This document shows, piece by piece, positions 1 through 4,664 of a stretch of DNA of 8,533 nt. A program made the position numbers and the translations under genes. The stretch spans positions 1-8,533 of the forward strand of contig PEWQ01000038.1 of NCBI GenBank assembly GCA_002780065.1, given 5' to 3'. Below the pieces are notes generated by a model. It had not been told where the DNA came from. It made no database searches and saw nothing but the letters and a program-made list of their open reading frames with translations. Numbering within the stretch: the stretch's first letter is position 1; each line of letters begins with the position of its first letter. This DNA comes from Candidatus Hydrogenedentes bacterium CG07_land_8_20_14_0_80_42_17 (GTDB lineage Bacteria; UBA8481).

Positions 1-681
1 ATTTTCGCCTTGGCTTATCATCTGCTTCGCCGAAATGGAAAAGAAGAGATCAAAATTTACTTCAACTCCCAGTCCTACTTTAGACGGTTTGTAATTCCCG
101 GTGCTTGAATCAATCTCGATAGGAGAAGCCTGACCTGCATCTACAGCCTGCTTTGCCGCAGTATTTTCCATTCCTAATATCTTCTGAGCCACTTCAAGAA
201 ATCTATCTTTGAGTGCGTCAGGAACAAGTCCTACACCCGTCACGACATCGGCAACCCGCCGGCTCGGGTCCGGTGAGCCGGCGGCCTCGTTGAGCGCGGA
301 AGCGAGAAGTTCAGGGCTTGCCCCCTTAGGCCCTTCATTCTGCAACCCTGCCCGCTTCGCGATTATCGCTCTTATGGACTTCATCACACTTGGATAATTT
401 TCTTTTACGATCTTCAAAATATCACTGGTGCTCTGCTGACCTTTTTCATCAAGTTTTTTTGCGAGTTTTTTGGCTATTTGCTCATCGATAGAATTTGTTT
501 TCTGTTTAGAATCGGAAAGTTCAACATTATCGCCTTTCTTCTCTTCATCATGTTTTGGAACATTAGGAAGATAAGAAATTGCTTTTGGATTAGCGTCATT
601 GGATGATGAAGATAATGTTCTCTTCATAACATCTTGAGACAAATATGAGTTCATTTTTATCAAATCCATTTTGTTTTTCAT
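1..681 (-). CDS. Unrecognised protein, 3' end cut by window edge
   Basis: An open frame of 227 codons runs from an ATG at 681 to the left edge with no stop, so the C-terminus lies outside the window. I do not recognise the family. Residues 1-80 are polar and low in complexity (serine, lysine, aspartate and glutamate rich, with no signal peptide) and look disordered. Residues about 80-110 are probably helical and basic. Residues about 115-150 are rich in alanine, proline and glycine and come from a GC-rich DNA patch. Residues about 150-227 look folded and end in a hydrophobic stretch (VNFDLFFSIS at 208-217). AAGGAAGG lies directly before the start at 681. In-frame ATGs at 669 and 654 are alternatives; the one at 669 sits 12 nt after the purine tract. 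Coding is supported by the uninterrupted frame and amino-acid-like composition. The function is unknown. Confidence 0.7.
   Translation of the reverse strand, partial: MKNKMDLIKMNSYLSQDVMKRTLSSSSNDANPKAISYLPNVPKHDEEKKGDNVELSDSKQKTNSIDEQIAKKLAKKLDEKGQQSTSDILKIVKENYPSVMKSIRAIIAKRAGLQNEGPKGASPELLASALNEAAGSPDPSRRVADVVTGVGLVPDALKDRFLEVAQKILGMENTAAKQAVDAGQASPIEIDSSTGNYKPSKVGLGVEVNFDLFFSISAKQMISQGEN
256..284. repeat. Perfect GC-rich inverted repeat inside a coding frame
   Basis: CCGCCGGCTC (256-265) and GAGCCGGCGG (275-284) are exact reverse complements separated by a 9-nt loop. The element is in frame with the minus-strand gene and encodes residues 133-142 (AAGSPDPSRR). It sits in a patch at about 225-360 that is clearly richer in G and C than the AT-rich DNA on both sides. 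It may be an inserted palindromic element or just a GC-rich linker; no T-run follows it on either strand, so it is not a classical terminator. Confidence 0.6.
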
Positions 682-689
682 CCTTCCTT
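682..689 (-). promoter_or_regulatory. Shine-Dalgarno-like tract of the left-edge gene
   Basis: On the minus strand AAGGAAGG abuts the ATG at 681. Pairing of the first AAGGA with 16S rRNA would leave 3 nt to ATG 681 or 15 nt to the in-frame ATG at 669. Neither spacing is ideal, so the exact start of this gene is uncertain. Confidence 0.4.
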
Positions 690-716
690 GGATTACTTCT
701 ATTGTCGGCAATAATC

Positions 717-770: not shown

Positions 771-3374
771 CTATTTAAAGATAAGTTTCCAGAGTAGTTT
801 CATTAATCCATTTTTTCTGAAGTCAGACCAAATTTCACCATAAGTTCTATGTGCGGATATACAATCGAAAAGCATCCTTCTGGTCGCTACTTCTTTTTTT
901 GCAATTCGTATTATTTTGTCGAGTAAACCAGTTTTTGAAATTACTTTAGTTATTCCTCTTAAGGCAGTCCCGAAAGGCATGTCGTGAATTACATTTTGAA
1001 AATGATCCTCATATTTTGAAAAACATTTTTTTGAAATACCATAGTTCAAAGCAATATCAGCAACGCATTTTGCCGTCATTATCGCCGCGTTTACGCCTTT
1101 TCCTTTGAACGGTCTAACTAATCCGCTTGCATCTCCAATTATAGCGTAGCGATCACCGTAATATGATTTTGCAGGCGCTGTAGGAAATTTGCCTTTGAAA
1201 AAATTTAATGCAGGTCTCAACTCATCAATCGTATTCGGTAATATATTCCGAACTTGAGGAAGATCTAGAAATGCATCCAGCTCTCTTGCCGTCACTTTAG
1301 CTCCTGCAATATTCAATACTACATGATCACGCTTAGGAGTAATCGCTCCGAATTCGACACCGGCGAGTTCAGGCAGATACGCGTGAATCGAACCTCCATA
1401 GCTATTAACCATTTCTATTCCTGGATGAATTTTCGTCAGTACCGATTGAGTTGATCTTGGGGGAATATAAGAAGTCTCGGATTTAAAAAGTGACATTGCT
1501 CCGTCGTCCATTCCAAAAGCTCCTATAACAAGATCGACTGCTCGTGAGTCCGTGTCCGAATATATCATCACTCGATCCCGCTCTATTTCTATTCCGACAA
1601 CTCTGGCATTTAATATCTCTGCCCCGCGCTCTTTCGCTATATCCAACAAATATCTGTCAAACGTAATTCTTCTTACTGCATACGCCGCGCTCTTTTCATC
1701 GGGTAATTCGATCGACTCATTTCGTCCGTGGAGAACGTATTTATCAATCTTTCTCTGAACTAAATCGTGAGGAAAAGAAACTCCGATATCTTCTAATATC
1801 TTTTCAATTGGAGGAGAAAGCACTCCTACACATGGATTGTAATTTCCTCTTCCGTCGTAGCGTTTCCCTTCGTAAACTGCAACGTGTATGTCTATCCCTT
1901 TCCGCTTTGCTCCGCCAATAAGCGCAATTGCCGCGGAAGCTCCGGCAGGTCCGCCTCCAATGATTGCAATCTTTGCTCCGGATTTCAAAGGGCCAAGCTC
2001 GTCTTTTATTCCAAACTTCATATCAGTTATACCTTTCGCCCGCTTCATGAATTGCTTGAAAGTGGAACGAATTAAACTCATCTGCAATGACATCGAAATA
2101 AATTCTTTCCATGATTCTTTGTACGAACGATTTCCCGTTAATATGTCCCACGTCACTCTTCTTAATGATTTTCCGACTTCGGTCGAATTTGTAAGCACTT
2201 CGACAAATGAAGCCGACATGAACTCATGTCTTCTCATCAAGTCATGAAGCAAAAATAATGGAACGCTGTATCGGTTATCTCTAACAAATTTTTCCGTCAT
2301 TGACCGAACATAATTTTCGTTCAAAGTTTTTTTGTCTATTCCATGATTTATTATTGCATCCGCCGCTTCACGAGCACAAACAAATGCAGAATAAATTCCA
2401 TTCTTGTAAGAACGTGAAAATGCCGCGTCGCCGACAAATATCAATCGGTCAGAAACTGCGCCGCGTGCACCGCCAATTGGAATTCTCGGCCGACATGTGC
2501 AAAATCTTTTAGGCGGTGTCCAAGTCGGCGGTAGAAGTGCTCTGAAAGATGGTATCTCCAAAAATCTGTGAAGATCCTCTAATGTCGCATTGCGCTTCGG
2601 AACAATCAAAACTGTTAAATATTTTGTCTTCGGTATGACAGCGGCAAACCTCTGTAATTCAAATGTCGGTGAAAAAACATGAATGTCGTCTCCAAAATGC
2701 TCCTCTATCCAATCCTCATCGATCGGCAATTCCGCTTGAATAGTGACAAGAGAATCTGGAGGACGATAGCCTATTTTTTTTGCGGTTAAATCTCGGATTA
2801 ATCCCGAATTTATGCCGCATGCAATAATGACTAGATCAAATTCCTCTTCTCTCTTCTGAGTCACTACCTTAATTTTAGAACCTTTTACTGACGGAATTAT
2901 TTCGGCGACATTTTCCTGTATGAGTTCTATTCCCTCGTCGACTACATGTTCGAGTAAAAAATCGTCGAATGAAATAGGCGCATCTGGAATTGAGCATAAC
3001 GGTCCGTTGCCGCGGAATACTACTGAGATGCGTTTGACTTTATCCGGCTGAGTAATCCGAACTGTTTGCCCCGGAGCATGAATCGTATATCCACTAATCT
3101 TTCTCTGCACCCGCGTCTCGGGTATGTTTATGCCTTCGGCTCTCATGAGCTCAACAAGAGTCTCCGATATAACTCCTGCGCAGAGATTGCATCCTGCCGG
3201 ACCGGTTGTCAGAAAATGCTTTGCATCGAAAATTTTTATTTTGAGGTCGAGGCCCCGGAGCCGTGCTTCTTTAGTGATAAAATGCGCCGTAAATGTTCCG
3301 GCAGGTCCGCCTCCAATGACTGCGATCCTAGAACCATCTTCAAGTTTTATTACCATAATTAAAAAATACCTCAT
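771..3374 (-). CDS. Tandem (two-module) geranylgeranyl-reductase-like FAD oxidoreductase
   Basis: This 867-aa protein is two homologous FAD modules in one chain; family members are usually a single module of about 350-450 aa. Module 1 (about 15-440) has the dinucleotide-binding GGGPAG at 21-26, a Cys motif CNLCAGVIS at 62-70, VQRKI at 89-93 and GDAAFSRSYKNGI at 315-327. Module 2 (about 465-867) repeats these: GGGPAG 473-478, NPCVGVLS 513-520, VQRKI 539-543 and GDASGLVRPFKGKG 747-760. Even the helical tails match (GNRSYKESW 414-422; AHRTYGEIW 841-849). Relatives reduce isoprenoid double bonds in lipids, quinone or chlorophyll side chains using FAD; the substrate here is unknown. There is no signal peptide. 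ATG 3374 has no Shine-Dalgarno; the in-frame ATG at 3356 has GAGG 12 nt upstream and is an equally plausible start. The gene is monocistronic or leads the left-edge gene, and is divergent from the esterase. Confidence 0.85.
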   Translation of the reverse strand: MRYFLIMVIKLEDGSRIAVIGGGPAGTFTAHFITKEARLRGLDLKIKIFDAKHFLTTGPAGCNLCAGVISETLVELMRAEGINIPETRVQRKISGYTIHAPGQTVRITQPDKVKRISVVFRGNGPLCSIPDAPISFDDFLLEHVVDEGIELIQENVAEIIPSVKGSKIKVVTQKREEEFDLVIIACGINSGLIRDLTAKKIGYRPPDSLVTIQAELPIDEDWIEEHFGDDIHVFSPTFELQRFAAVIPKTKYLTVLIVPKRNATLEDLHRFLEIPSFRALLPPTWTPPKRFCTCRPRIPIGGARGAVSDRLIFVGDAAFSRSYKNGIYSAFVCAREAADAIINHGIDKKTLNENYVRSMTEKFVRDNRYSVPLFLLHDLMRRHEFMSASFVEVLTNSTEVGKSLRRVTWDILTGNRSYKESWKEFISMSLQMSLIRSTFKQFMKRAKGITDMKFGIKDELGPLKSGAKIAIIGGGPAGASAAIALIGGAKRKGIDIHVAVYEGKRYDGRGNYNPCVGVLSPPIEKILEDIGVSFPHDLVQRKIDKYVLHGRNESIELPDEKSAAYAVRRITFDRYLLDIAKERGAEILNARVVGIEIERDRVMIYSDTDSRAVDLVIGAFGMDDGAMSLFKSETSYIPPRSTQSVLTKIHPGIEMVNSYGGSIHAYLPELAGVEFGAITPKRDHVVLNIAGAKVTARELDAFLDLPQVRNILPNTIDELRPALNFFKGKFPTAPAKSYYGDRYAIIGDASGLVRPFKGKGVNAAIMTAKCVADIALNYGISKKCFSKYEDHFQNVIHDMPFGTALRGITKVISKTGLLDKIIRIAKKEVATRRMLFDCISAHRTYGEIWSDFRKNGLMKLLWKLIFK
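1941..1963. repeat. 23-nt exact copy shared with 3297-3319 (module 2 copy)
   Basis: These 23 bases encode, on the minus strand, the IGGGPAG loop of module 2 and are identical to 3297-3319, which encode the same loop of module 1. Apart from a shorter shared stretch over VQRKI, the two modules have diverged strongly. Confidence 0.8.
3297..3319. repeat. 23-nt exact copy shared with 1941-1963 (module 1 copy)
   Basis: This is the module 1 copy of the nucleotide-identical FAD-loop segment, 1,356 bp from the other copy in the same orientation. Confidence 0.8.
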
Positions 3375-3466
3375 TATCAGGTTATTAGCTATCTTCTTTC
3401 TATTTCATACGCATCTTTATTATGATAAAATTTGACGGCTATGATTCCAATATCGCAAATCGTCTT

Positions 3467-3472
3467 AGGAAG
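3467..3472 (+). promoter_or_regulatory. Shine-Dalgarno deciding the esterase start
   Basis: AGGA (3467-3470), extended to AGGAAG, lies 6 nt (from AGGA) before ATG 3477. Neither TTG 3432 nor ATG 3441, the two upstream in-frame starts, has a purine-rich site, so 3477 is preferred. Confidence 0.55.
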
Positions 3473-3476
3473 TGTT

Positions 3477-4664
3477 ATGCTTCTCAACATTATGACTTCA
3501 TCTGAAAATTTCGGCTCAAAAAATATTGAAGTTTTTTTAGAAGTTCGTCTGCCGAATGAAACTCCTGATGAAAAGATTTTCATTGCAGGCAGTTCTGAGT
3601 CTATCGGTAATTGGAAAGCAGACGGCTTTGAACTTTCACGTATAGATTCTTTGACGGCAAGTTGCAGATTTAAAATCTCCCGCAATGAAATTTTTGAATA
3701 TAAAATTACTCGAGGTTCTTGGCAGACTGTTGAAAAAGATAAAAATGGAGCAGAGATTCAAAATAGAAAATTCGATCCGCGCGGCTTTGCCGGCAAAGAT
3801 ACCATAGAGATAAAAGTCGATGTTGCTTCGTGGTCTGATACTGCAAAACCTGCTTCTCATACGCTCACAGGAGATATACGCTTCCACGAAAATTTTCAAT
3901 CTCATATTTTGGAAAATTCCCGCACGATTTCTGTATACTTGCCGCCCGGCTATAAAAACTCTCGTCGAAGATATCGCGTGCTATACATGCACGACGGTCA
4001 AAATATATTTGACGCCGCAACATCGTTTTCTGGAGTCGAATGGGGAGTTGACGAAGCTTGCGAGCAATTAATATCTGAAGGCAAGATTGAACCGATTATT
4101 GTTGTAGGAATAAATAATAATGACAAAAGAGTCGATGAATATACGCCTGCTGAGTCAACTGACCCGAAGCGAGAAGGCGGAGGAAAAGGCGTTGCTTACG
4201 GAAAATTTATTATAGAAGAGCTTAAACCATTTATCGACAGAATATACCGCACAAGAAGTTCCAGAAAAAATACTTTCATTATGGGTTCCTCGCTTGGTGG
4301 ATTGATATCTCTGCATCTTGCATGGACAAGACCGGATATATTCGGCAATGCCGGCATAGTTTCTCCCGCGCTTTGGTGGGCTGACTCGGAAATACTTCAG
4401 CGAATAAAAAAAGAGCCTCCGCCTAAACCTCTTCCAAAACTTTGGATCGATATGGGCACTGAAGAGGGGAACAGTCACGATTCCTTTAAGGAATGCATAG
4501 AAGAACTTTCAACATTAAAATCTATTCTCAAAGAAAAGGGATGGCGAGAAGGAAGAAATTTGAAGGCTTATCTTGCAGAAGGACAGAATCACAGCGAACG
4601 CGCATGGAATTCAAGAATTGAAATTATACTGGAATACTTTTTTAAAATTCCAAAAAATAACTAA
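3477..4664 (+). CDS. Esterase (esterase D/Fes-like) with N-terminal CBM20-like domain
   Basis: This is a 395-aa protein counted from ATG 3477. Residues about 15-120 resemble a starch-binding (CBM20-type) beta-sandwich: IFIAGSSESIGNW at 34-46, then EYKITRGSW at 74-82. Residues about 140-390 form an alpha/beta hydrolase of the putative esterase family (PF00756): YLPPGY 154-159, HDGQNIF 172-178, and the nucleophile elbow GSSLG 270-274 with Ser272. His372 in GQNHSERAW is the likely catalytic His. Asp325 (WIDMG) is a candidate acid. Relatives cleave carboxylic esters, including feruloyl/acetyl esters and siderophore lactones; the substrate cannot be read from sequence. The frame stays open upstream to TTG 3432 and ATG 3441. 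Those longer forms add a hydrophobic stretch (IPISQIVLGSVMLL) with no basic residue before it, a poor signal peptide, and they lack a ribosome site. The protein is therefore predicted cytoplasmic, though export is not excluded. It is a single gene, divergent from the FAD oxidoreductase and convergent with ilvN. Confidence 0.8.
   Translation: MLLNIMTSSENFGSKNIEVFLEVRLPNETPDEKIFIAGSSESIGNWKADGFELSRIDSLTASCRFKISRNEIFEYKITRGSWQTVEKDKNGAEIQNRKFDPRGFAGKDTIEIKVDVASWSDTAKPASHTLTGDIRFHENFQSHILENSRTISVYLPPGYKNSRRRYRVLYMHDGQNIFDAATSFSGVEWGVDEACEQLISEGKIEPIIVVGINNNDKRVDEYTPAESTDPKREGGGKGVAYGKFIIEELKPFIDRIYRTRSSRKNTFIMGSSLGGLISLHLAWTRPDIFGNAGIVSPALWWADSEILQRIKKEPPPKPLPKLWIDMGTEEGNSHDSFKECIEELSTLKSILKEKGWREGRNLKAYLAEGQNHSERAWNSRIEIILEYFFKIPKNN

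What the first reader, a model, noticed from the sequence alone, without database searches (positions are those of the whole stretch)
771..3374. Two geranylgeranyl-reductase-like modules fused in one 867-aa chain
Every family landmark occurs twice in the same order: GGGPAG, Cys motif, VQRKI, GDA motif, and an (N/H)R(S/T)Y-x-E-x-W tail. The duplication therefore covers the whole protein, tail included. Enzymes of this family that I know are single-module. A fused pair could be a pseudo-dimer, catalyse two successive reductions, or pair a catalytic with a regulatory module. That is inference; the duplication itself is visible.
Basis: partly seen in the sequence, partly recalled or inferred. Interest (0 to 1): 0.6.

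Follow-up and report, generated by a model that had tools for sequence, protein, structure and literature searches.

The report
Fused pair of diverged reductase-like flavoproteins
One long bacterial protein is made of two distantly related halves that resemble lipid-reducing flavin enzymes; the same two halves occur together, fused or as separate genes, in anammox bacteria and several other phyla, which marks an old and apparently undescribed two-part enzyme or redox device of unknown substrate.

Summary
An 867-aa ORF on the MINUS strand (771-3374) holds two full-length geranylgeranyl-reductase (GGR)-fold halves, 26% identical. It is not an assembly join: 38 fused copies were collected from several phyla, among them Aminicenantes, most of the anammox class, Myxococcota and Poribacteria. 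The same halves are also encoded as adjacent genes, mainly in Anaerolineae. N and C halves form two separate clades, so the pair is an old duplication kept together; fused and split forms interleave on the tree. In a domain-wide sample 11 of 12 genomes with C also have N (p 5e-15), while N also occurs alone. Neither half reaches NCBI's GGR-family cut-off, and both lack the catalytic YxWxFP motif. C keeps the active-site Cys and FAD landmarks. N carries three extra invariant cysteines (98 of 98 sequences) absent from C and from ordinary GGRs. Some N copies are fused or adjacent to cyclic-nucleotide-binding domains; some C copies are fused to GNAT acetyltransferases. My reading: an obligate flavoprotein pair in which C does the redox chemistry and N supplies or gates electrons through a cysteine site. 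Substrate and chemistry are unknown.

The parts
771..3374 (-). Whole ORF, 867 aa, two GGR-fold halves; probable true start Met7 at nt 3356
   Evidence: ORF and translation; homolog starts; upstream sequence
2055..3356 (-). N module, residues 7-440
   Evidence: BLASTP of halves, N clade, fold match to GGR 3oz2 Z 30.3
1986..2054 (-). Linker, residues 441-463; 450-458 below pLDDT 50
   Evidence: AF2 model
774..1985 (-). C module, residues 464-867
   Evidence: BLASTP of halves, C clade, fold match to GGR 3oz2 Z 34.1
3297..3314 (-). GGGPAG of N module (residues 21-26), dinucleotide-binding loop
   Evidence: near invariant in N set
3180..3191 (-). CNLC of N module: C62 specific to N, C65 equals the GGR active-site Cys
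   Evidence: C62 98/98; C65 Cys 77, Ser 21; comparison with C modules and outgroup
2493..2501 (-). CTC of N module: C292 and C294, specific to N
   Evidence: 98/98; absent in C modules and outgroup GGRs
2424..2432 (-). GDA of N module (residues 315-317), FAD-binding motif
1941..1958 (-). GGGPAG of C module (residues 473-478)
1830..1832 (-). C515 of C module, equivalent of the GGR active-site Cys
   Evidence: 59/59; aligned with outgroup Cys
1656..1670 (-). RxxFD motif of C module (residues 569-573)
   Evidence: R569 and D573 59/59
1335..1352 (-). FGAITP of C module (residues 675-680), in the place of GGR YxWxFP
   Evidence: alignment with ordinary GGRs
1095..1136 (-). GDA (747-749) and GKG (758-760) of C module, FAD and catalytic loop
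   Evidence: D748 59/59, G760 59/59

Best explanation
The protein is the fused form of an old, near-obligate pair of GGR-superfamily flavoproteins. Shown: the two halves descend from one duplication, and C is almost never found without N. Inferred: C is the catalytic flavoenzyme that reduces (or desaturates) a hydrophobic, probably lipid- or prenyl-like substrate; it keeps GxGxxG, RxxFD, GD, a GKG loop and the active-site Cys. N is a flavoprotein partner whose extra cysteines (C62, C292, C294, with C65) form a redox site near the flavin, either a metal or Fe-S site or a dithiol, and it passes or gates electrons to C. Fusion holds the two together; split genomes would form a heterodimer. N can also serve other partners, because it occurs alone and next to cyclic-nucleotide-binding domains.
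For: Two clades and wide co-occurrence: C 100/97, N 88/98; C with N 11 of 12 genomes, Fisher p 5e-15; C never alone. C keeps all FAD-site residues in 59/59 sequences. N-specific invariant cysteines in 98/98, absent elsewhere. Fold of both halves is GGR/FixC. Precedent: an archaeal GGR gains activity with its neighbouring ferredoxin-like protein (PMC9385802).
Against: No substrate, cofactor or interaction was measured. Distances between the cysteines could not be computed because no coordinates were given. Whole-chain pTM of 0.56 leaves the contact of the halves open. One nearly complete genome (G006) has C without N. N has changed flavin-loop residues and may not bind FAD in all lineages.
Confidence: 0.38

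Rival explanations
1. Redox sensor or signalling device: N is a sensing module tied to two-component and cyclic-nucleotide signalling, and controls the output of C.
For: cNMP-binding domain fused to N (L101) or adjacent (L070, L104, L105, L107, L108), GNAT fused to C (L009, L025); histidine kinases, an HD-domain response regulator and a response regulator-cyclase nearby.
Against: Such neighbours are absent from the window and from many split pairs; fully conserved FAD and active-site residues in C argue for catalysis. Sensor kinases are abundant in these genomes, so adjacency alone is weak.
Confidence: 0.2
2. Two catalytic sites: both halves carry out successive reductions on one substrate.
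For: Both halves keep GxGxxG, GD and usually the active-site Cys position; GGR substrates carry several double bonds (established knowledge of the family).
Against: N lacks the GxG loop and has an insertion before FD; some fused N modules have lost the GD Asp while C never has; N occurs alone more often than C does.
Confidence: 0.15
3. Ordinary prenyl reductase (menaquinone, dolichol or similar) in which the second half is only structural.
For: Best family and fold matches are GGRs.
Against: Scores far below the family cut-off for each half, YxWxFP absent in both halves, strongly conserved N-specific cysteines.
Confidence: 0.12
4. Artefact: an assembly join or a recent local duplication.
For: The source is a fragmented assembly of 207 contigs.
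Against: The same fusion in the same order in many independent assemblies, including the record titled complete genome of Brocadia pituitae; deep split of the halves.
Confidence: 0.01

Closest known systems
Archaeal geranylgeranyl reductase (SaGGR 3atq/4op*, Thermoplasma Ta0516 3oz2)
   Same: Fold of both halves (C Z 34.1, N Z 30.3 to 3oz2), GxGxxG, GD, active-site Cys
   Different: Single module with YxWxFP and GxG; this pair lacks YxWxFP, N also lacks GxG and has extra cysteines
FixC, the ETF-quinone oxidoreductase-like subunit of Fix/EtfABCX (7koe)
   Same: Second-best fold match of both halves; one of the best profile matches of N
   Different: No EtfA, EtfB or FixX was recognised among the recurrent neighbour clusters; no fused FixC pair known to me
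NCBIfam TIGR02032 geranylgeranyl reductase family / TIGR02023 BchP-ChlP
   Same: Best profile matches of each half
   Different: N 56.3 and C 80.9 bits against the cut-off of 158.8 for TIGR02032
Bacterial sterol C-24 reductase Bsr, a GGR homolog of Myxococcota (PMC12004948)
   Same: Shows that GGR homologs can act on non-prenyl lipids
   Different: Bsr keeps YxWxFP according to the paper; this pair does not

Membership tests
Geranylgeranyl reductase family (TIGR02032 GG-red-SF) | Score above the curated cut-off | tested here: not met
   N 56.3, C 80.9, whole protein 132.8 bits against 158.8
Geranylgeranyl reductase family (TIGR02032 GG-red-SF) | GGR fold | tested here: met
   Both halves match 3oz2 best
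Geranylgeranyl reductase family (TIGR02032 GG-red-SF) | Active-site Cys (Cys47 of SaGGR) | tested here: met
   C515 59/59; C65 present in the window, Cys 77 and Ser 21 across N; definition from PMC6309074
Geranylgeranyl reductase family (TIGR02032 GG-red-SF) | Catalytic YxWxFP motif | tested here: not met
   RFAAVIP in N, EFGAITP in C, whereas three ordinary homologs shown have GYGWVFP, GYGWIFP or GYAWIFP
Geranylgeranyl reductase family (TIGR02032 GG-red-SF) | GGG/GEG/REG loop | tested here: inconclusive
   GKG in C, near invariant; K-N-G in N
Geranylgeranyl reductase family (TIGR02032 GG-red-SF) | Reduces prenyl double bonds | not testable with these tools
   Needs an assay
ETF-quinone oxidoreductase / FixC | Encoded with EtfA/EtfB and a FixX-type ferredoxin | tested here: inconclusive
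   No recurrent neighbour cluster that I examined was of that kind, but not every neighbour was scanned by HMM

The most novel reading that the evidence does not exclude
A previously undescribed two-component flavoenzyme, found across several phyla and nearly universal in the class of the anammox bacteria, in which the N half carries a metal or Fe-S site of cysteines beside its flavin and relays electrons to a catalytic C half, with some versions under cyclic-nucleotide control.
Probability: 0.27. Interest if true: 0.68.

Novelty: new variant of a known kind. Interest (0 to 1): 0.47.

Why it matters
GGR-type flavoenzymes are described as single modules. An old, near-obligate N-C pair that re-appears as one chain or as two genes implies that the halves work as one unit, and predicts an interaction that can be tested directly. 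Its frequency in the anammox class, where much lipid and redox biochemistry is unassigned, and its patchy spread elsewhere make it a good target for finding a new lipid- or quinone-directed redox activity. N's invariant cysteines give a precise, cheap hypothesis to test.

Tried and rejected
Assembly join: rejected, the same fusion occurs in many independent assemblies. Recent tandem duplication: rejected by the tree. Ladderane-specific enzyme, suggested by the anammox hits: not favoured; the pair also occurs in many other phyla, and term searches of two ladderane candidate-gene papers found no geranylgeranyl or flavoprotein mention in one and nothing relevant in the other. Triple fusion N-N-C in one frame, suggested by open-frame lengths: checked, they are separate ORFs. 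Conserved biosynthetic operon: none found; recurrent neighbours differ by lineage. A ketoacyl synthase beside one N gene (L011) did not recur. Literature: no paper on a fused or paired GGR was found in the held library, which lacks most subscription journals. The ~200-aa C-terminal extension of some N proteins has no Pfam or NCBIfam match.

Full report
WHAT IS THERE. The ORF lies on the minus strand, 771-3374, and encodes 867 aa. BLASTP of its two halves gives 26% identity over 435 columns, E = 4e-36, so the duplication is real and spans the whole chain. Relatives begin at Met7, the likely start, nt 3356. Upstream and divergent is an esterase; further along are an acetolactate synthase pair and a DHDPS-family enzyme; downstream is an ORF without a family match that runs off the contig. 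Nothing nearby suggests a pathway.

NOT AN ARTEFACT. A search of 60 genomes found three more fused copies, and split or single copies. A scan of genome contigs found 77 loci. With separate N and C profiles I classified the ORFs. Fused N-C proteins of roughly 870-940 aa occur in Aminicenantes, Brocadiales and other Planctomycetota, Myxococcota, Abyssobacteria and Poribacteria, including the Brocadia pituitae record titled complete genome. Adjacent, often overlapping N then C genes occur in Anaerolineae/Chloroflexi, one Aminicenantes (JdFR-78), Nitrospinota and Glassbacteria. Divergent N and C genes occur in Acidobacteriota. In all, 38 fused pairs and 21 separate C genes were collected; a few near-identical records may be counted in these sets.

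AGE AND PAIRING. In the careful tree (70 rows) C modules form one clade (100/97) and N modules another (88/98), apart from ordinary GGR homologs. The outgroup branches are long, so the root is less sure than the N/C split. Fused and split forms are interleaved in both clades (quick tree), so fusion or fission happened more than once. In 241 genomes across the domain 16 had a strong match: 11 with both, 1 with C only, 4 with N only; Fisher p = 5e-15, without correction for relatedness. In the class of Brocadia 49 of 60 genomes matched, mostly fused; in several small genomes N and C lie on different contigs. In Anaerolineae 8 of 80 matched, six of them with both. In the phylum sampled around L033 7 of 80 matched, five of them N only. 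C was never alone in these three searches. C therefore appears to need N, while N can act without C.

ANATOMY. Predicted structures are confident: whole chain pLDDT 89.2, pTM 0.56; N alone pLDDT 93.3, pTM 0.92. The low whole-chain pTM means that the arrangement of the halves is not determined. Both halves match Thermoplasma GGR 3oz2 best (C Z 34.1; N Z 30.3) and FixC 7koe second. Sequence profiles point to the GGR family but stay below its curated cut-off. GGR hallmarks from the literature are the active-site Cys, YxWxFP-x7-8-GxG and a GGG/GEG/REG loop (PMC6309074), and RxxFD and LxGD (PMC10821996). C has the Cys (59/59), RxxFD, GD and a GKG loop, but FGAITP in place of YxWxFP. N has the Cys position (Cys 77, Ser 21) and GD, but an insertion before FD, K-N-G in place of GxG, and no YxWxFP. 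N alone has C62, C292 and C294, present in 98 of 98 sequences and in none of 27 C modules or 8 outgroup GGRs at those columns. From general knowledge of the related p-hydroxybenzoate hydroxylase fold, both segments should lie near the exposed edge of the flavin; this is inference, as I had no coordinates.

A FURTHER ASYMMETRY. The Asp of the GD motif is kept in 59/59 C modules and 60/60 separate N modules. It is changed in 10 of 38 fused N modules, nine of them in loci that carry another N gene, mostly Scalindua and near relatives, so probably few independent events. The invariant cysteines stay in these copies. This suggests that the flavin site of a fused N can relax when a second N is present, while C's never does. 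The window protein keeps all of these residues.

CONTEXT. There is no conserved biosynthetic operon. Signalling genes recur in some lineages: histidine kinases and an HD-domain response regulator near the pair in planctomycetes; a cNMP-binding domain adjacent to N in L070, L104, L105, L107 and L108 and fused to N in L101; a response regulator-cyclase near L107; multihaem cytochromes upstream in some Scalindua. C is fused to a GNAT in L009 and L025 and, judged from sequence likeness only, in L147. So at least some versions are wired to signalling; the window copy shows none of this.

MECHANISM. Shown: homology, old pairing, dependence of C on N in gene content, and distinct invariant residues. 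Inferred: C is the catalytic flavoenzyme on a hydrophobic substrate; N is a flavoprotein with a cysteine redox site that feeds or gates electrons. A literature precedent is that an archaeal GGR gained activity in E. coli with its neighbouring ferredoxin-like protein (PMC9385802). The substrate remains unknown. A sensor role, two successive reductions, or an ordinary prenyl reductase remain open with the weights given.

NOVELTY. No description of a paired or fused GGR-type protein was found in the held papers. I rate it a new variant of a known kind: known fold, new two-module arrangement with a new cysteine signature.

Noticed in passing
L101 1668-3428; L070 4370-4786; L104 6427-6882; L107 6377-6907; L108 6344-6712; L105 6308-7171: A cyclic-nucleotide-binding domain is fused to, or encoded next to, one subclade of the N module in several phyla.
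   Followed up: partly
L009 859-2649; L025 1492-3219; L147 752-2470: C modules fused to a C-terminal GNAT acetyltransferase domain; the first two by Pfam, the third by sequence likeness only.
   Followed up: partly
L053, L054, L055, L056, L057, L060, L076, L047, L051: The fused N module has lost the GD-motif Asp in loci that also carry another N gene.
   Followed up: partly
L119 1119-3857, L120 1448-3574, L028 31-1578: A divergent N variant with a ~200-aa C-terminal extension that has no Pfam or NCBIfam match.
   Followed up: partly
L006/L029 (G002:C5): The C gene is preceded by only remnants of N; residues about 89-407 of the query are missing, a deletion or a misassembly.
   Followed up: no
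window 1-711, minus strand: An ORF of 237 aa or more that runs off the contig directly downstream of the fused gene, without a Pfam or NCBIfam match.
   Followed up: no
window 3432-4664, plus strand: Divergently transcribed esterase with a CBM20-like (starch-binding) stretch near its start; the CBM20 match is just under its cut-off.
   Followed up: no
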